Shown here piece by piece: positions 4,387 through 15,150 of a DNA stretch of 40,764 bases (position 1 is its first letter; each line of letters opens with the position of its first letter). Source of the stretch: Candidatus Hydrogenedentota bacterium (lineage in GTDB: Bacteria > Hydrogenedentota > Hydrogenedentia > Hydrogenedentales > JAEUWI01). A model generated the notes under the pieces. The model was given only the letters and a program-made list of their open reading frames with translations. It searched no databases and had not been told where the DNA came from. The stretch is from positions 1-40,764 of the forward strand of contig JAJRPE010000482.1 of the NCBI GenBank assembly GCA_024280935.1, read 5' to 3'. The translations under genes were made by a program, and so were the position numbers.

Positions 4387-5820
4387 ATGAATAAACCAAT
4401 GTACTTTTATACGGTTATTTTTATTATGTTCTTATATCCTGAAGTTGTGTGGTCGGAACCGCCCTCCGAAAAAGCTGTCATTGGTGAACTCAGCATTATT
4501 AATATTGCTCCCTACACTATTTCTGCCAGTACTGCCTATCAGAACGAAAATGGGCGATGGGAAATGCATGGTTGGTATAACTTGGAGCCTGGTGAATATA
4601 TCGAGCATCGGCGCCAATTATATGCTGAAAACCCATCTATATATGTTTTCGCGAGTTCTTCCGATATAGATGCTGTTGGTTGGTGCCACGATGTGCCCGA
4701 GGGTTCTAAGGCTGAACTGGAATGGCCAGGTGCCGCCGAACCGGTTGCGTTCGAAGCATGGATGAGGAACATTAAGCATGGCGTAAGCGCGAGCACTCTC
4801 CACGGACTTCAAAGATGCTTGGCCTTAGGCGAGCCAGGAGAAGATTCACGCATTGTTCGATTTGCTCCGGCTGTGTTGACAGAGGATATCGAAATAGGGT
4901 TATCGCAAGTCACGCGTCGTTTTTCGTACATTGTCTATGATCCTACAATGAATATTTCCAAGCCCCTCATTACCTCACCCCAAGAACTTTCGGAAGCGAT
5001 GCAATATGCGCAACTGTTGGGTGATTCTTTGGCTCGGCAGGTGGCGCACGATGCAGACTGGAAAGATAAAGAGGACTTTCCGTATCTACTAGGTATAGTC
5101 TTAAGTGATTCTAATGACTGGCACGAATTGGGTGTGGAAGTAGTAGAAGCGCCGACTCAAACTTGGGACGAGAAACCCATGCAGATAAAGGCCGGGGACC
5201 TTCTAGTGCAACTCTCTGGACGTCCTGTATTCTCTCGCCGAGATGTGCGGTTGTTATTACGTGAACATGCAGAGGATATTGAGCGAGGTATAGAAAAACC
5301 AATTTCGTTTGTTGTTCATCGAGGGGATAAATCTGTTAAGGGAATGACTACCTATTGGTTTCATCCTATGTATTTTACTCCATACTCGGAAGGGGGTTCA
5401 TTTATCCTTGGGCTGTTTGATTCAATAACGTTTAGCCAAAGCGATAAAATCGGCGGATTTTTGAGCACATTGTTTTTTGCTGCCGACGAGGGCGCGGAAA
5501 CTCGCTGGGATATTGCGCAACGTATTGCAATTGAAAAGCAGCATAATAGAGATGACTTCAATGCGGGTTCGTTTGGAGGTATGTTTGTTAACCCCACGCG
5601 TGGAGCAGTGAAAGCGGTAGCTGGAAAATCGGGTGCGAAGTTTCTCTCGTCAACGGCGGGGCGTGTTGCATTCGAAGTGGTTGAAGGTATGGTTTGGACG
5701 ATTGGCGATGGGACACCCATGCGCTCGCGTTCGGATTTGACCTCAGAGATAGTGGCGAATATCCCCTATTCGATAGGGGGCGGACTGGCTCAAGGAGCCT
5801 TGAGGAGCATTTCGAGATGA
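4387..5820 (+). CDS. Exported protein with a DUF1036-like N-terminus and PDZ-like region
   Basis: Signal peptide MNKPMYFYTVIFIMFLYPEVVWS; IINIAPYTISASTAYQNENGRWEMHGWYNLEPGE resembles DUF1036; IKAGDLLVQLSGRPVFSRRDVRLLLRE resembles a PDZ domain. Confidence 0.6.
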   Translation: MNKPMYFYTVIFIMFLYPEVVWSEPPSEKAVIGELSIINIAPYTISASTAYQNENGRWEMHGWYNLEPGEYIEHRRQLYAENPSIYVFASSSDIDAVGWCHDVPEGSKAELEWPGAAEPVAFEAWMRNIKHGVSASTLHGLQRCLALGEPGEDSRIVRFAPAVLTEDIEIGLSQVTRRFSYIVYDPTMNISKPLITSPQELSEAMQYAQLLGDSLARQVAHDADWKDKEDFPYLLGIVLSDSNDWHELGVEVVEAPTQTWDEKPMQIKAGDLLVQLSGRPVFSRRDVRLLLREHAEDIERGIEKPISFVVHRGDKSVKGMTTYWFHPMYFTPYSEGGSFILGLFDSITFSQSDKIGGFLSTLFFAADEGAETRWDIAQRIAIEKQHNRDDFNAGSFGGMFVNPTRGAVKAVAGKSGAKFLSSTAGRVAFEVVEGMVWTIGDGTPMRSRSDLTSEIVANIPYSIGGGLAQGALRSISR

Positions 5821-6569
5821 AAAAGGTCCCCTTTCAATTTACTGTCAATTGGTTTTTAGTAGCGCTCATGACGTTTTCTATGATTCCGGTGTCCGTCTTC
5901 GCGGCATCGGGACCATCGAGAGCCTTTAAGGCGGTGACTCGTCAAGTTGATTTCCCGAAACCTGTGACCAAGTTTATGACACCAATCTCGGCTGTACGAA
6001 CGCCTGTAGTTCGCACCAGTATGACTCCCGTCTCGTCGCCATTGTCGACTCCTAACTTGAGTACTGGTGGCTCTTTTCGACCGAATAATGGCCCTACGGC
6101 ACTCAAACCTCTATCCGCAGCACGCTCTCAGGAACAAGCTGGCACTGCGCGTCGTATAGAAGTAGAAGGAACTCTTGCAAGAAAGGCAGATGAAAAACGA
6201 ATTCTAGATGATGCCGCCTGGCAAAAAAAACAAGATGATAATACCAGGTGGCGGGAGCGCCAGCGACAAAACCAGGAGTACCAACAGAATAAACAGGCAG
6301 AACCGCAGAGGAATAATTCCGTGAACGTAGTTTCTCGACCGCGTACGACTGACCAAGCGTTGAATACGGGACATCGATTTGTGGGAGATAGTCCCGACCA
6401 CCTTGCTCCTGGGGTGTACCGTTCACAAGATGGAACAAGACAATTTCGATTGACAGATTCGGATATTCAAGGTAATCATGGACAAGTAGGCCCCCACGTA
6501 CACTTTGAAAAATTTGACCCTTTAACTGGGGATAAGACTAAGAACATACATACGCCTCTGAAGGACTAA
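5817..6569 (+). CDS. Exported protein with putative toxin-like C-terminal domain (GPHVHFE...)
   Basis: ATGA overlap with previous gene; signal peptide MKKVPFQFTVNWFLVALMTFSMIPVSVFAA; charged middle; compact C-terminus RQFRLTDSDIQGNHGQVGPHVHFEKFDPLTGDKTKNIHTPLKD. Confidence 0.65.
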   Translation: MKKVPFQFTVNWFLVALMTFSMIPVSVFAASGPSRAFKAVTRQVDFPKPVTKFMTPISAVRTPVVRTSMTPVSSPLSTPNLSTGGSFRPNNGPTALKPLSAARSQEQAGTARRIEVEGTLARKADEKRILDDAAWQKKQDDNTRWRERQRQNQEYQQNKQAEPQRNNSVNVVSRPRTTDQALNTGHRFVGDSPDHLAPGVYRSQDGTRQFRLTDSDIQGNHGQVGPHVHFEKFDPLTGDKTKNIHTPLKD

Positions 6570-6796
6570 TGACTGTGCAATCACGCTTAATATCCAAAGT
6601 TCCGTCTTCGCATCAGAAAGATGGTATTCGTTGGCTACTCCTTGAACCCAATGCACACCAGGGTTGGTTTCTTTTTGGGCATCGGACGTTGGAAGATAGG
6701 TCTGTTTTTGATAGTTGGCATTTAACTCGTTTTGAAGCCGAACGAGAGGCGGCCTTGCAGTGGGGAGTTAATGGGCTTGATTGGTCTGACACTTAA
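6569..6796 (+). CDS. Small protein, candidate cognate immunity protein (75 aa)
   Basis: TAATG overlap with upstream gene; Trp-rich MTVQSRLISKVPSSHQKDGIRWLLLEPNAHQGWFLFG...SWHLTRFEAEREAALQWGVNGLDW. Confidence 0.6.
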   Translation: MTVQSRLISKVPSSHQKDGIRWLLLEPNAHQGWFLFGHRTLEDRSVFDSWHLTRFEAEREAALQWGVNGLDWSDT

Positions 6797-7094: not shown

Positions 7095-7703
7095 ATGTCA
7101 GGAGGATTGCCCATGATTGCATGTTATTGCCGCGTAAGCTCGAAGAGCCAAAAGAACGACAGCCAGCGGGCCGAGATTCGGCGGTGGTTGAAGGGGCACG
7201 ACATCGAGGCGGATGCTGTGACCTGGTTCGAAGACAAGGAATCTGCGAAGTCGCTAGAACGTCCGGCTTTGGCGGCGATGCAGGAAGCCATCTTCTCGGG
7301 GAATGTAAAGACCGTTGTGGTTTGGAAGCTGGACCGTATTTCCCGCAATCTGCAGGACGGTATCAACTTGCTTGCCGGATGGTGTGACCGTGGCGTGCGG
7401 GTGGTCTCTGTGACCCAGCAAATCGACATGTCCGGAGCCGTGGGGCGGATGGTGGCCAGTGTCATGTTTGGTCTGGCGGAAATAGAATTAGAGTACCGCC
7501 GGGAGCGCCAGGCCGCAGGTATTCGCGTGGCCCAGGGCAAAGGGGTCTACCAGGGCCGGAAGAAGGGGACAACGAAGGCCAAGCCTGCTCGCGCCAGAGA
7601 GCTGCAGGAGCAGGGCCTAACGACCTCAGAGATTGCCACTGTCCTGGGCGTGAGCGCCCGGACAGTTTTCCGGTACCTGGTCGCCGTGGGGGAGAAGGAG
7701 TAG
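7095..7703 (+). CDS. Serine recombinase / resolvase family protein
   Basis: IACYCRVSSKSQKNDSQRAEIRRWL, VVWKLDRISRNLQDGINLL, MVASVMFGLAEIELEYRRERQAAGI, C-terminal HTH TTSEIATVLGVSARTVFRYL. Confidence 0.92.
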   Translation: MSGGLPMIACYCRVSSKSQKNDSQRAEIRRWLKGHDIEADAVTWFEDKESAKSLERPALAAMQEAIFSGNVKTVVVWKLDRISRNLQDGINLLAGWCDRGVRVVSVTQQIDMSGAVGRMVASVMFGLAEIELEYRRERQAAGIRVAQGKGVYQGRKKGTTKAKPARARELQEQGLTTSEIATVLGVSARTVFRYLVAVGEKE

Positions 7704-9126: not shown

Positions 9127-9336
9127 TTACGGGACTAAATCAGCTTCAGCCACGCGACTAATGTGGCTATTGAGGTAACCGCCTGTTTGAATGGGTTTAA
9201 AGCTTCCATTAATACGTTGTGTCTCAACTGTGCGATTATTCTCTAGTTCCACAAGGTAGTAGCGCCCATCTTCGGCATCCTGTGTGCGAGAGAGGTATTG
9301 GAATTTTTGAGCGCCGTCGGTTGGTATCAAATACAT
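9127..9336 (-). CDS. Small hypothetical protein at the distal end of the CBASS-like operon (69 aa)
   Basis: MYLIPTDGAQKFQYLSRTQDAEDGRYYLVELENNRTVETQRINGSFKPIQTGGYLNSHISRVAEADLVP; co-directional. Confidence 0.5.
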   Translation of the reverse strand: MYLIPTDGAQKFQYLSRTQDAEDGRYYLVELENNRTVETQRINGSFKPIQTGGYLNSHISRVAEADLVP

Positions 9337-9380
9337 TCTTCGTATCTCCGTGTCTGCGGTTTGGTGTCCAGCGGAATTTG

Positions 9381-9563
9381 TCAGCTTTTCTTACTGGGGC
9401 TGCTCTCATGTGTAGGAGCCTTTGGTGGCTTCACTGGCGGCATAGGAACCTTGTGCGTAGTCGGAGGTAGACTGCGCCCTTCATTATTTATTGGAGCTTT
9501 TTGCCTCACGCTTTGAGGTTTGCTTGATGGACCGCTGCTCTTGCCGGGATTTTTTTTAGACAT
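9381..9563 (-). CDS. Small basic Pro/Ser/Lys-rich protein in the CBASS-like operon (60 aa)
   Basis: MSKKNPGKSSGPSSKPQSVRQKAPINNEGRSLPPTTHKVPMPPVKPPKAPTHESSPSKKS; AGGAG ribosome site in the short gap after SLATT-B. Confidence 0.55.
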   Translation of the reverse strand: MSKKNPGKSSGPSSKPQSVRQKAPINNEGRSLPPTTHKVPMPPVKPPKAPTHESSPSKKS

Positions 9564-9577
9564 GACTTGACTCCTAT

Positions 9578-10120
9578 CTAGAAGTTTTCGAAGAATTTAT
9601 CGGCATTGGACTCTGCTCTACCCATGAATTTGTTGCGCACCGGAAGTGGGCTTTGCCCAAGATATTCCCGTGCGGCTTTTGATTTTTCAGACTTCAGTTT
9701 CATCACTAATTCGTGAATCTCCTTTTCTGTTAACTCACCATTGGAAACCGGGAACCAGTCTCGTTGTGCGGACAGGAATATTTCATCCATAGCTGCCAAG
9801 AGCCGGGGAAGCGACTTCATTCTTTTGTCGATTGGAGTATGACTACGCAAAGCGCCTACAACCTGTGAAGATGCGATGATGGTTGCCCAAATTTCCGAGT
9901 GTTTTTGCCAGATAACCCAAGCTCCGATGCCTCCACTAGATGCAAGAGCAACTATCCAGTTCATTGCCATCTGGCAGCGCTCGTTGAATATCAAATACTC
10001 TTCGAGATAGTACAAGTGGACTCTGAGTGAAACTAGTTCTTTCCAGTATTTCTGTTGATAGATACTTATTTCGTTTCTCGCCGCTGTGTTTTGTGATTCA
10101 GCTACCTCTTGACTGTCCAT
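9578..10120 (-). CDS. SLATT-like 2TM putative effector (SLATT-B)
   Basis: Amphipathic N-terminal helix, a hydrophobic pair (MNWIVALASSGGIGAWVIW / IWATIIASSQVVGAL), then helical C-terminus; downstream of a CD-NTase. Confidence 0.65.
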   Translation of the reverse strand: MDSQEVAESQNTAARNEISIYQQKYWKELVSLRVHLYYLEEYLIFNERCQMAMNWIVALASSGGIGAWVIWQKHSEIWATIIASSQVVGALRSHTPIDKRMKSLPRLLAAMDEIFLSAQRDWFPVSNGELTEKEIHELVMKLKSEKSKAAREYLGQSPLPVRNKFMGRAESNADKFFENF

Positions 10121-10180
10121 AGATTTTCCTACTTTGGGGCCTCACTTAGTAGCGATTTTTCTACAGTATAAGTTCGACCG

Positions 10181-10705
10181 TTAAGAATCATCATCAGTGT
10201 TTTCTTGGTCCACGTCGAAGTAGTAGTCACCTTTTTGAATTTTAGCTTGGGCGCTCCGGAAACACCATTCAGGGGCAGTGAAGCTAGGGCTTCGAGCTTG
10301 CTCCAAACGGTCGATGAACGTTTGGACCTGTTGTTCAAATTCTGGAACTGTGTTCTTAGAACTGACAACGGCCGCGAAACGAAACCGGTCTTGAAGGTTC
10401 TTGTACTCGCCTGCAAGTTGAACGCACTGGGAAAGATAATCGTCGAATTTCAGAGCGGAGTATATGGAAGGCAATAAACCAGCAAGGAAGGCGGCCGCCG
10501 CAAGGAATAACTTGATGGCCTGAAGGTCTGACGCAGTGAGTATTTCCCATGTTGCAATGGAACCAAGAAGGAGAGGTAGGGCGATGAAACATGCCTTAAT
10601 GATGCGTAAGCAGCGAAGCCAGATAAAAAGAGACGTGGAAGTGTAAAGACAGCTTTCGGAGAGGCGGCGACATTCCTGGACTAGCTGGGCGCGTTTTGTT
10701 GTCAT
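10181..10705 (-). CDS. SLATT-like 2TM putative effector (SLATT-A)
   Basis: CLRIIKACFIALPLLLGSIATWEIL and LFLAAAAFLAGLLPSIYSAL followed by a long helical region; ATG 10705 lies 5 bp after the CD-NTase stop. Confidence 0.75.
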   Translation of the reverse strand: MTTKRAQLVQECRRLSESCLYTSTSLFIWLRCLRIIKACFIALPLLLGSIATWEILTASDLQAIKLFLAAAAFLAGLLPSIYSALKFDDYLSQCVQLAGEYKNLQDRFRFAAVVSSKNTVPEFEQQVQTFIDRLEQARSPSFTAPEWCFRSAQAKIQKGDYYFDVDQENTDDDS

Positions 10706-10710
10706 GGTGG

Positions 10711-11586
10711 TTATCCTGTAGGGATGTCTGGTCCGAAAATCTTCTGCCATTCACTGCCGGCGCTATAAGGCATGTCGTCACTCTCAAATTTACATGCTTT
10801 GCAGGCGCGTGCGTAGGCCGTGTCCGCACGACTGAGCCAAGAATTCCCAAGGAAAAGCATTTCATAGGTGCCGGGGACCCAGAGGTATCCGTTGGCTTTT
10901 CCTTTGAGAAAATTGAGGTAGTCGCGAATCATCCAGTCATAGTACACAGTTGATTTGTCGCGATACTCCCAGGATTCAAGAAACTCGATGCCTGTAAGCT
11001 CTATCAAAAAGGACTTAATTGGTACATTGCAGTAATCCTGCCAACGCTTCATCATTCTGATGAGGTGCCTTGTATTTTCATTGGTGTTGTCGTTGGATAT
11101 CTTGACGTGAGCTATCTCGGCGTAAGGGTCTGCTTTTTTGTAGGTCCCACCGCCGTGTGTATCACATATCCAAAATTGGTTGTTTGTGAGCAAAAAGGCT
11201 GGGAGAACTTCTACGGCGTAGCTCCCGAAGCCTACTAGGACAACCTGGCCATCACCTCGGAGGCTTGTGTTTGGGTAGGTATAAGCGACAACAGTCTTAA
11301 CTTCTTGCAGGATTTGGGATTGCTTGTTTCCTGGTCGTAGCTGGTAGCGTTCGTATACGGAATTCGGGAGAATGAAAAGGATATCTATGTCGCGAGGTGG
11401 TCGAATTTGAGTAGATTTTCCCCAGGACCCGATAAGGAGGCTATTGGCGGAAGATAATTTCGTACCGTAGTAATGAGCGTTGAGACAGGTACGAATCCCC
11501 CTGTGCTTTGTCGTTCCGTCAGTCTTCTGAGGCTGGGTCAGGAGCAGTTTTCCTAAAAAGGCGGAAAATCTATGGGCTACGGTCAA
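10711..11586 (-). CDS. CD-NTase (SMODS-type nucleotidyltransferase; CBASS cyclase)
   Basis: GSWGKSTQIRPPRDIDILF (GS...DxD) and YAVEVLPAF (third acidic residue). Confidence 0.88.
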   Translation of the reverse strand: MTVAHRFSAFLGKLLLTQPQKTDGTTKHRGIRTCLNAHYYGTKLSSANSLLIGSWGKSTQIRPPRDIDILFILPNSVYERYQLRPGNKQSQILQEVKTVVAYTYPNTSLRGDGQVVLVGFGSYAVEVLPAFLLTNNQFWICDTHGGGTYKKADPYAEIAHVKISNDNTNENTRHLIRMMKRWQDYCNVPIKSFLIELTGIEFLESWEYRDKSTVYYDWMIRDYLNFLKGKANGYLWVPGTYEMLFLGNSWLSRADTAYARACKACKFESDDMPYSAGSEWQKIFGPDIPTG

Positions 11587-11847: not shown

Positions 11848-12174
11848 TCAGCTATCAGGTGTATTTTGTCCAATACCTGATAGTGTCACTGGAGAATGGT
11901 TGGGAAATTGAACGGTGATGCTAAGTTCCCCGCCCATAGCCCTCACATGATTTTGTAACGTGGATAACATCATATCGGAGCGTTTCTCTATCCGGGAGAT
12001 ATTCTCCTGGTTGATGTTTAGTTTCCTGGCCAGTTCCGTTTGCGTAAGCTTTTGTGCCTTACGCAGTTCTTCTAGCGTTAGGTATTCGTCTAAGATTTCC
12101 TCCCCTCGGCGCTCTATTTCCTCGCGTCTATCTTTGGGAAGGGCATTCATGACATCCTTTAGTTTCTTAGTCAT
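11848..12174 (-). CDS. XRE-family antitoxin
   Basis: HTH: LTQTELARKLNINQENISRIEKRSDMMLSTLQNHVRAMGGEL; overlaps the upstream toxin gene. Confidence 0.85.
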   Translation of the reverse strand: MTKKLKDVMNALPKDRREEIERRGEEILDEYLTLEELRKAQKLTQTELARKLNINQENISRIEKRSDMMLSTLQNHVRAMGGELSITVQFPNHSPVTLSGIGQNTPDS

Positions 12175-12535
12175 TTTCTTTTCCCTTCAGTTGTTGTAAA
12201 TGGTCATTAAATCTAGTATCTGCTTTTTTGATGAGCTGTTTATAAAACCGCTTTTGGCCCGTTCCAGATTTGTCGCCAGCCACCAGCAAGATGGCCGTTC
12301 GCTCTGGGTCGAACGCAAAGGCGACACGCCAGACGCCATCATCGGCGTTAAAGCGCAGTTCCTTCATATTCTTATGCTTCGAGGCTTTCAGCGTATCTAC
12401 ATTGGGGCGGCCTAAGGTGGGTCCCAGTTTTCTAAGAGGTATTAGCGACGCTAACAGCTCATCTTGAACTTCCTCAGAAAGCATTGAAAACTCATCGTAA
12501 AAGTCCGAATAAAATTCTATGTTCCAATCATCCAT
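12167..12535 (-). CDS. RelE/HigB-like toxin (phage Gp49-like)
   Basis: IEFYSDFYDEFSMLSEEVQDELLASLIPLRKLGPTLGRPNVDTLKASKHKNMKELRFNADDGVWRVAFAFDPERTAILLVAGDKSG. Confidence 0.88.
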   Translation of the reverse strand: MDDWNIEFYSDFYDEFSMLSEEVQDELLASLIPLRKLGPTLGRPNVDTLKASKHKNMKELRFNADDGVWRVAFAFDPERTAILLVAGDKSGTGQKRFYKQLIKKADTRFNDHLQQLKGKEND

Positions 12536-12804: not shown

Positions 12805-13089
12805 ATGGGTGATTCATCGGACATGTCCGATATTGGGCGCTTTCTTCGGAGCGCGGAAGGGCAGGAGTACTTGGAGGGCTTTGCGGCCTTGCTGCTAAAC
12901 CAGACAATTGACGACGTTGAATTCGTCAATCAAGGCGTATTCGTAAGCATGCGCCTCAAGTTGCGTGGGGGAGGGGCTATGGACGTAACCATGCCGGGCT
13001 TTGATATAGGCGCGCTCCGCGAGCAATTTGAAGATGTGATGGAGCGGGAATACTACACGGACTATCCCGCCCGCACTCCCACCCCTTAA
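12805..13089 (+). CDS. Hypothetical protein (94 aa), intact copy of the 3951..4237 pseudogene
   Basis: MGDSSDMSDIGRFLRSAEGQEYLEGFAALLLNQTIDDVEFVNQGVFVSMRLKLRGGGAMDVTMPGFDIGALREQFEDVMEREYYTDY... Confidence 0.65.
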   Translation: MGDSSDMSDIGRFLRSAEGQEYLEGFAALLLNQTIDDVEFVNQGVFVSMRLKLRGGGAMDVTMPGFDIGALREQFEDVMEREYYTDYPARTPTP

Positions 13090-14063
13090 TAGCTTATTTT
13101 CAACGTAGCCGCGTCTTCGGGTCGGCTTTTGCGGCGGTCGTAAAGCCGCGTGGTGCTTACATTGGCATGGCCCAGGTCTTCCTGGACCTTGGCGATGTCG
13201 GCCTGGTGCTCCAGGGCGTTCGTTGCGCCGGTGGCCCGCAGGGCGTGGGCGGAGAAGGCATCCAGGTCAATGCCCGCCGTTGCGGCGTAGGGCCGCAGAA
13301 TGCCATCCACGGAGTCGGGGTGTAGCCCCTTGTCCAGCCGCCCGGTAACGTTGTTCTTCACCGGCCGGAAGAGGGGCCCCTTCTTCTCGGAGCCATGCCC
13401 GGCTTCTTCCAGGTATTCATAGATACGCTCGACGACGACGGGGTGGGCGACGATGTTTCGGAGGCGTCCCCCTTTGCCGTGTACCCGGAGATAGGGGGTG
13501 CCCCGCCGTTGGTGGAGATCCCCGACGCGCAGGGTGCAGAGTTCTTCCCGGCGAAGCATCTGGTACAAAAAGGTCGCCACCATGGCGCGGTCGCGCTTTC
13601 CCTTCAGGGTGTCGGCCGACGGCGCATGGAGCAAGCGGCGGGCCTGGCCGTCGGAGATGGCCGGGGTCTTGCCCTCGTTGTTGTTGGCCCTGGGGCGCTT
13701 CACGCCCTTGACGGGATTGTGGGTGATGGAATTCTGCTCACAGAGGTAATCAAAAAGGGAACTCAGGGCAGAGAGCTTGGCCCGGATGGTGGCCGGGGCG
13801 TTGCCCAGGGCCTCCATGCGCTTCCTGTAGGCGATGACGTGGGCGCGGGTCACCTCCCGGAACTGATCCGGGTGCTCCAGGGCCAGTAGGCGGGCAAACT
13901 CGCTCACGTGCTTCTCGTAGACGCGCCGGGTCCGGGCGTTGGCGAGGTTCTCCAGCCACTCGACGGCGTCCGGCACCTTCTTGAGCCGGTGGAATTCCTC
14001 GGCGCTGAGGCTAAGGGTCGTCGCGGCCGCCGCTGCGGGTATGATTTCCTTGGTCTTGCTCAT
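13086..14063 (-). CDS. Tyrosine recombinase (XerC/D-like integrase)
   Basis: REELCTLRVGDL, VHGKGGRLRNI, SAHALRATGATNAL, LGHANVSTTRLYDRR. Confidence 0.92.
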   Translation of the reverse strand: MSKTKEIIPAAAAATTLSLSAEEFHRLKKVPDAVEWLENLANARTRRVYEKHVSEFARLLALEHPDQFREVTRAHVIAYRKRMEALGNAPATIRAKLSALSSLFDYLCEQNSITHNPVKGVKRPRANNNEGKTPAISDGQARRLLHAPSADTLKGKRDRAMVATFLYQMLRREELCTLRVGDLHQRRGTPYLRVHGKGGRLRNIVAHPVVVERIYEYLEEAGHGSEKKGPLFRPVKNNVTGRLDKGLHPDSVDGILRPYAATAGIDLDAFSAHALRATGATNALEHQADIAKVQEDLGHANVSTTRLYDRRKSRPEDAATLKISY

Positions 14064-14230: not shown

Positions 14231-14644
14231 ATGGATAACAAGCACAAACATTTAGAGTTGATACAGGGGGTCGTAAACCGGCTTTCAACCAATTCCTTTT
14301 TGCTCAAGGGTTGGAGTGTCGTTCTTGTGTCTGCGTTGTTTGCACTATCGGCTCCCGATTCACGGATTGCGTTCGTTTATCTCGCTTACATTCCTGCGAT
14401 CATTTTTTGGGGGTTGGATGGTTTTTTCCTTTGGCAAGAACGGCTTTTTCGTAAGCTCTATGATCGGGTGCGAGTGCTGCCAGAGGATGAGGTAGATTTT
14501 TCAATGGACGTAAGCGTTATCAACGAAGACGACCGTCCTACATGGGGGACTTCGATACTCTCAAAAACGCTCATCCCGTTTCATGGTGTTCTGATTCTTT
14601 CTGTTGTCATTGTGATGGTCTTAACGCTTACTGCGCAGGAGTAA
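14231..14644 (+). CDS. Small multi-pass membrane protein adjacent to the TIR-like gene
   Basis: Hydrophobic segments LLKGWSVVLVSALFALSA, VYLAYIPAIIFWGLDGFFLW and VLILSVVIVMVLTL. Confidence 0.8.
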   Translation: MDNKHKHLELIQGVVNRLSTNSFLLKGWSVVLVSALFALSAPDSRIAFVYLAYIPAIIFWGLDGFFLWQERLFRKLYDRVRVLPEDEVDFSMDVSVINEDDRPTWGTSILSKTLIPFHGVLILSVVIVMVLTLTAQE

Positions 14645-14652
14645 CAAGAGTG

Positions 14653-15150
14653 ATGAAGCACAGAGCTTTTTACAGTTTCCACTATGCACCAGATAACTGG
14701 CGCGTTGCCACAGTGCGCAATATCGGGGCGATTGAAGGCAACAAGCCCGCTCCGGATAATGATTGGGAAACCGTCACGAAGGGCGGGGATGCGGCGATCA
14801 AGAAATGGATTGCTGACCAAATGTATGGGCGGTCATGCACGGTCGTTTTGGTTGGAACAAACACAGCCGGACGCAAATGGATTAATCACGAGATTATCAA
14901 ATCGTGGGACGATGGTATGGGTGTGGTCGGCATTCACATTCATGGCTTGAAAAACTCAAAAAGCGAAACGTCTACAAAGGGAAGAAACCCGTTTACTTCG
15001 ATTGGATATGGCAATACGGGAAAGAAGCTCTCTTCCATCGTGAAATGTTATGACCCTGTTGGCTCAAATAGCCAAGAGCGATACGATTGGATCAAGCAGA
15101 ATCTTGCAAATGCTGTTGCAGAGGCCAACAAAATACGCAAAGACAATTAA
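14653..15150 (+). CDS. TIR-like domain protein (DUF1863 / MTH538-like, ThsB-type)
   Basis: MKHRAFYSFHYAPDNWRVATVRNIGAI...AIKKWIADQMYGRSCTVVLVGTNTAGRKWINHEIIKSWDDGMGVVGIHIHGLKN. Confidence 0.85.
   Translation: MKHRAFYSFHYAPDNWRVATVRNIGAIEGNKPAPDNDWETVTKGGDAAIKKWIADQMYGRSCTVVLVGTNTAGRKWINHEIIKSWDDGMGVVGIHIHGLKNSKSETSTKGRNPFTSIGYGNTGKKLSSIVKCYDPVGSNSQERYDWIKQNLANAVAEANKIRKDN

What the first reader, a model, noticed from the sequence alone, without database searches (positions are those of the whole stretch)
9127..11586. Five-gene CBASS-like operon with two different SLATT-like membrane proteins
Seen: minus-strand run CD-NTase (GSWGKSTQ..DID, VEVLP) -> SLATT-A -> SLATT-B -> 60-aa basic protein -> 69-aa protein, with gaps of about 5-60 bp. 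Known: CD-NTases make cyclic (oligo)nucleotides that activate effectors, and SLATT proteins are predicted 2TM effectors of such systems. Unusual: two non-identical SLATT-like proteins in one operon and no visible Cap2/Cap3 or HORMA/TRIP13 helper. Inference: a heteromeric membrane effector or an effector/regulator pair.
Basis: partly seen in the sequence, partly recalled or inferred. Interest (0 to 1): 0.82.

Follow-up and report, generated by a model that had tools for sequence, protein, structure and literature searches.

The report
CBASS pair plus separate SLATT–microprotein cassette
A bacterial anti-virus operon turns out to be two systems in a row: a known two-gene alarm-and-membrane-effector pair (CBASS), followed by an apparently undescribed travelling cassette that pairs a membrane protein with a tiny protein carrying a fixed short sequence tag, a tag that elsewhere is found fused to another defence enzyme and on unrelated virus proteins.

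Summary
CD-NTase (10711-11586) and SLATT-A (10181-10750) are an ordinary type I CBASS pair; no relative examined has a protein-B homologue after it. Protein B (9578-10120) is a divergent SLATT (7 of 16 family members hit NCBIfam SLATT_4, best 2.8e-10) but not a CBASS subunit. I collected 28 B loci; none of the 18 checked has this CD-NTase. In 24 of 28 the gene next to B's stop encodes a 37-74 aa disordered protein like the window's 60-aa one, with a fixed motif [LF]P-x6-PMP, usually followed by KVKPPK. One B locus without it, an MmeI-type restriction operon, carries the motif on the C-terminus of the helicase just upstream; ~85%-identical helicases in B-less operons lack that tail. So B and motif were gained together. 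B cassettes stand alone in prophages and beside unrelated defence genes (caspase, AbiU2, IetAS, DRT4, type IIG R-M). The motif also occurs on unrelated phage proteins. Best reading: CBASS plus an independent SLATT-B/tag-microprotein cassette, a membrane effector controlled through the tag. The heteromeric two-SLATT effector is not supported. The 69-aa ORF has no detected homologue.

The parts
10711..11586 (-). CD-NTase (SMODS nucleotidyltransferase), gene 1 of a type I CBASS; TTG start
   Evidence: Pfam SMODS 1.3e-32, PADLOC Cyclase 1e-124, catalytic residues conserved in alignment with five plasmid relatives
10181..10750 (-). SLATT-A, 2TM CBASS effector, overlaps gene 1 by 40 nt
   Evidence: PADLOC 2TM effector 2.4e-69, NCBIfam SLATT_4 5.8e-8; CD-NTase+SLATT pair in relatives
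9578..10120 (-). SLATT-B, divergent SLATT-like membrane protein of a separate mobile cassette
   Evidence: 28 homologous loci; SLATT_4 in 7 of 16 members, best 2.8e-10; hhalign; AF2 pLDDT 87
9381..9563 (-). 60-aa disordered basic microprotein, partner of SLATT-B
   Evidence: homologous small ORF right after B in 24 of 28 B loci; third-codon-position bias among relatives
9420..9470 (-). conserved motif LPPTTHKVPMPPVKPPK ([LF]P-x6-PMP) inside the microprotein
   Evidence: alignment and motif count
9127..9336 (-). 69-aa ORF, uncertain gene, no detected homologue, perhaps not part of either module
   Evidence: no match in plasmids or in 99 other genomes

Best explanation
Two defence modules lie head to tail. 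Module 1 (genes 1-2) is a type I CBASS: on infection the CD-NTase makes a cyclic nucleotide that activates the membrane effector SLATT-A. Module 2 (genes 3-4) is an independent mobile cassette of a second, divergent SLATT (B) and a disordered microprotein with a fixed short linear motif ([LF]P-x6-PMP, usually then KVKPPK). Shown: B and the motif go together across phyla; the microprotein is under protein-level selection; the motif appears on another defence protein (a helicase) where B has joined that operon. Inferred: the motif peptide acts on B and sets its state, most likely holding a membrane effector closed until infection removes or titrates the peptide (about 0.35); less likely it tethers B to a sensor or activates it (about 0.25).
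For: Relatives of the CD-NTase pair with a SLATT-A but not with B. 24 of 28 B loci have the motif microprotein starting near B's stop codon; the two complete loci found after the motif was defined both have it. In L053 the microprotein is missing but the adjacent upstream helicase ends in GLPTPNGTPPMPKVVEPKKE, while 84-86% identical helicases in four operons without B lack this tail and run straight into the GIY-YIG gene. Motif regex: 22 of 24 hits in 271,422 aa of B-locus ORFs are these proteins. Third-position bias. B cassettes stand alone in prophages and beside unrelated defence genes. B family matches SLATT models.
Against: No experiment. Binding of motif to B is not shown: AF2 of a read-through B+microprotein left the tail at pLDDT 52-64, and charge complementarity was not found. 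L026 has no motif; L017 and L020 have acidic partners that fit only a loose version. A and B are 60 nt apart on one strand and could still be co-transcribed and cooperate in this genome. In prophages no other sensor is seen, so what triggers B is unknown.
Confidence: 0.62

Rival explanations
1. One reading: one CBASS operon whose effector is a heteromer, or effector/regulator pair, of SLATT-A and SLATT-B, both under the CD-NTase.
For: Same strand, close spacing, no clear promoter or terminator between A and B; both are SLATT-like.
Against: No relative of the CBASS pair has B, and no B locus checked has the CD-NTase; B has its own partner and stands alone in prophages.
Confidence: 0.1
2. B and the microprotein are a classical toxin-antitoxin-like addiction pair on mobile elements, with no specific role in phage defence.
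For: Two adjacent, nearly overlapping genes on plasmids and prophages; tandem microprotein copies in Methylobacterium loci; in L011 B is interrupted by an in-frame stop while the microprotein is intact.
Against: Frequent position next to defence genes; motif fused to a restriction-operon helicase; toxicity untested.
Confidence: 0.15
3. The motif binds a common host protein and serves phages and defence cassettes alike; its link to B is indirect.
For: Same motif on about eight unrelated phage proteins with no B detected nearby; a scrambled pattern hit 2 contigs against 16.
Against: The helicase gained the tail only in the operon that has B; no B-free microprotein was found in bacteria, though only one exact pattern was searched there.
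Confidence: 0.2

Closest known systems
Type I CBASS with 2TM (SLATT) effector
   Same: Genes 1-2: CD-NTase plus overlapping SLATT, no Cap2/Cap3 seen
   Different: Genes 3-4 are not part of it in any relative examined
SLATT effectors, e.g. of DRT10 (PMC12632851)
   Same: B is a small helical membrane protein of the SLATT kind placed in defence loci; in DRT10 the SLATT gene is required for defence and its authors propose that SLATT toxicity may be held off by a partner molecule
   Different: B's partner is a motif microprotein, not a reverse transcriptase/ncRNA or cyclic nucleotide
Toxin-antitoxin pairs
   Same: Two adjacent genes, second one small and disordered, mobile distribution
   Different: Motif can be worn by a helicase; no DNA-binding antitoxin; toxicity untested

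Membership tests
Type I CBASS (genes 1-2) | CD-NTase with intact active site | tested here: met
   SMODS 1.3e-32, Cyclase 1e-124, GS...DxD...E conserved
Type I CBASS (genes 1-2) | dedicated effector next to the CD-NTase | tested here: met
   PADLOC 2TM effector 2.4e-69, overlapping gene
Type I CBASS (genes 1-2) | no Cap2/Cap3, HORMA/TRIP13 or other helper | tested here: met
   none among ten window proteins scanned around the locus
Type I CBASS (genes 1-2) | cyclic nucleotide product and phage protection | not testable with these tools
   needs biochemistry
CBASS membership of genes 3-4 | conserved next to this CD-NTase/SLATT pair | tested here: not met
SLATT (protein B) | match to SLATT profile models | tested here: met
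   family level only: SLATT_4 in 7 of 16 members (best 2.8e-10), SLATT_1 in 5; none for the window protein itself; below curated cut-offs not checked per member
SLATT (protein B) | 2TM hairpin with cytosolic helices | tested here: inconclusive
   AF2 helices around a short hairpin, pLDDT 87; two moderately hydrophobic segments; no topology program available
Type II toxin-antitoxin (genes 3-4) | two-gene unit conserved in varied contexts | tested here: met
   24 of 28 loci
Type II toxin-antitoxin (genes 3-4) | first protein toxic, second neutralises it | not testable with these tools
   needs expression tests

The most novel reading that the evidence does not exclude
A family of SLATT membrane effectors is controlled by a transferable peptide tag ([LF]P-x6-PMP-KVKPPK) worn either by a dedicated microprotein or by another defence protein (helicase C-terminus), and phages carry the same tag on unrelated proteins as decoy or trigger: a tag-addressed membrane effector shared among unrelated defence systems.
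Probability: 0.33. Interest if true: 0.85.

Novelty: new variant of a known kind. Interest (0 to 1): 0.62.

Why it matters
How SLATT proteins are switched is unknown for most of their families. A SLATT with a short, conserved, transferable peptide partner gives a directly testable handle: one peptide, one membrane protein. If phage proteins with the same peptide turn out to lock or trigger it, that would tie a phage sequence motif to a defence effector. It also warns that annotators may wrongly merge this cassette into neighbouring systems such as CBASS.

Tried and rejected
Foldseek of the B model against PDB: nothing with E below 0.001, only generic helical matches. Sequence search of B and A profiles against PDB: nothing convincing. 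P2-hotspot idea for the prophage copies: the neighbour is a nucleoid-associated protein (phrog_3767), not the portal, so dropped. Charge complementarity between B and microprotein: no correlation. Small-only rows misaligned in the fusion alignment and were left out; the AF2 fusion gave no docking signal. tblastn with the short motif in phages and plasmids: no match, perhaps because of the low-complexity filter. Exact motif DNA pattern in 392 genomes: none; microproteins found there differ by a residue or so. Caspase as obligate B partner: rejected, a relative in Pseudoalteromonas piscicida has no B. The founding SLATT and CBASS-classification papers I looked for are not in the library, so absence from the literature is not proven.

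Full report
1. Observation. CD-NTase and SLATT-A overlap by 40 nt; the other gaps are 60, 14 and 44 nt. CD-NTase matches Pfam SMODS (1.3e-32) and PADLOC Cyclase (1e-124); SLATT-A matches a PADLOC 2TM effector (2.4e-69) and NCBIfam SLATT_4 (5.8e-8). B, the 60-aa and the 69-aa proteins of the window hit nothing in Pfam, PADLOC, NCBIfam or PHROGs.

2. CBASS part. The nearest plasmid CD-NTases (41-50% identity) are followed by an overlapping or abutting SLATT, then by unrelated genes. Nine viral-contig relatives give the same picture where the contig and reading frame allow it to be read; none has a B-like product. tblastn of B against the seven plasmid CBASS loci found nothing. Genes 1-2 are therefore an ordinary type I CBASS.

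3. B family. tblastn and profile searches brought 28 independent B loci (window included) from plasmids, chromosomes, prophages and viral contigs, mostly Pseudomonadota, also a Nitrospirae-labelled and a Bacteroidota MAG. B is absent from 67 other genomes of the window's phylum and rare elsewhere. None of the 18 B loci checked has the CD-NTase. B is SLATT-related: NCBIfam SLATT_4 hits 7 of 16 members (best 2.8e-10) and SLATT_1 hits 5. hhalign links B to two accepted SLATT groups with E 4.4e-4 and 8.2e-4, better than those two groups to each other (0.016) and far from unrelated controls (0.2-0.87). AF2 gives an all-helical model around a short hairpin (pLDDT 87).

4. The partner. Starting near B's stop codon, 24 of 28 loci encode a 37-74 aa proline-rich protein, often not annotated. 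Its only strongly conserved part is LPP-x5-PMP-[KP]-V-[KQ]-PPK, in Alphaproteobacteria SIFPTFxVNVPMP, mostly with the same spacing [LF]P-x6-PMP. The window's 60-aa protein has GRSLPPTTHKVPMPPVKPPK. Among related prophage copies most substitutions fall on third codon positions, so it is a real protein. Methylobacterium loci have two or three tandem copies. The two complete loci found after the motif was defined both carry it (RGLPTTGTKTPMPQVKPPK and RNLPNMTVKTPMPPVKPPK). Exceptions: two acidic partners (L017, L020) that fit only a loose version, one without (L026), and L053.

5. L053 is the telling exception. There B sits between a DEAD helicase and a GIY-YIG-type gene in an MmeI-type restriction operon. 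No microprotein follows B, but the helicase just upstream ends ...GNKGLPTPNGTPPMPKVVEPKKE. Relatives of this helicase occur in 262 plasmid records; the best hits, 84-86% identical, align only to about residue 690-700. In four of them the helicase gene runs straight into the GIY-YIG gene, B is not found, and the protein ends ...AQGDSANG or similar. B and the motif were therefore most simply gained together, and the motif can be worn as a C-terminal tag.

6. Context. B cassettes stand alone in prophages, some beside a nucleoid-associated protein or DNA methyltransferase gene. Elsewhere they lie next to unrelated defence genes: caspase/PDC-S65 (twice), PDC-S54, AbiU2, IetAS, DRT4, PDC-S59, type IIG enzymes, MmeI, and in L086 a pair that reads as SIR2 plus ThsB-like TIR (the SIR2 assignment is by eye). 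The two caspases are 63% identical, but their B proteins are 37% identical and fall in different branches, which suggests reshuffled partners. There was no systematic background count of defence genes, so this enrichment is qualitative.

7. The motif beyond B. A DNA pattern for PMPKV[KQ]PPK hit 16 viral contigs. Six are B partners; ten (about eight independent proteins) are unrelated phage proteins with no B detected nearby, among them a protein next to a terminase-like gene, zinc-ribbon-like proteins and a C-terminal tail RGLPITNTTTPMPKVKPPKHSD. A scrambled pattern of equal degeneracy hit two. Three of the eight also keep LP at the same spacing. Mimicry or a common target is possible; neither is shown.

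8. Mechanism. Shown: two separable modules; coupling of B with the motif; selection on the microprotein. Inferred: the peptide controls B. The lock (antitoxin-like) version is favoured by translational proximity, tandem copies, stand-alone prophage cassettes and a locus with B broken but the partner intact (L011); AF2 gave no docking. The adaptor version is favoured by the helicase fusion. Precedent for a SLATT proposed to be held off by a partner molecule: DRT10 (PMC12632851).

9. Verdict. Observation confirmed. The interpretation as one five-gene CBASS with a two-SLATT effector is not supported; CBASS plus an independent SLATT-B/tag-microprotein cassette fits the data best. I found no description of the cassette in the library, but the founding SLATT paper is not held.

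Noticed in passing
window 14231-15150 (+): Second defence locus: a membrane protein matching PADLOC PDC-M50A (5.8e-52) overlapping a ThsB-like TIR protein (PDLC00433 1.3e-65; Pfam ThsB_TIR). The TIR is 60% identical to one that follows a B cassette in L086.
   Followed up: partly
window 11848-12535 (-): RelE/Gp49-like toxin and HTH antitoxin pair directly upstream of the CBASS genes.
   Followed up: no
window 7095-7703 (+) and 13086-14063 (-): Serine-recombinase-like and tyrosine-integrase-like genes (by eye) flank the defence genes, suggesting a mobile island.
   Followed up: no
L068 8227-8253, L070 11154-11180, L071 10298-10324, L075 6133-6159, L076 5121-5147, L077 10690-10716, L066 2511-2537, L072 1761-1787: Unrelated phage proteins carrying PMPKVKPPK, several with the extended LP-x6-PMPKVKPPK motif, with no SLATT-B detected nearby: decoys, triggers or users of a common target.
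   Followed up: partly
L053 6192-8348 (-): Restriction-operon DEAD helicase with the B-partner motif added at its C-terminus, absent from close relatives in operons without B.
   Followed up: yes
L017 about 6513-6686 and L020 about 5457-5645: B genes from two phyla followed by acidic small proteins sharing S[IV]P[ED][VL]DE instead of the basic PMP motif; perhaps a second specificity class.
   Followed up: partly
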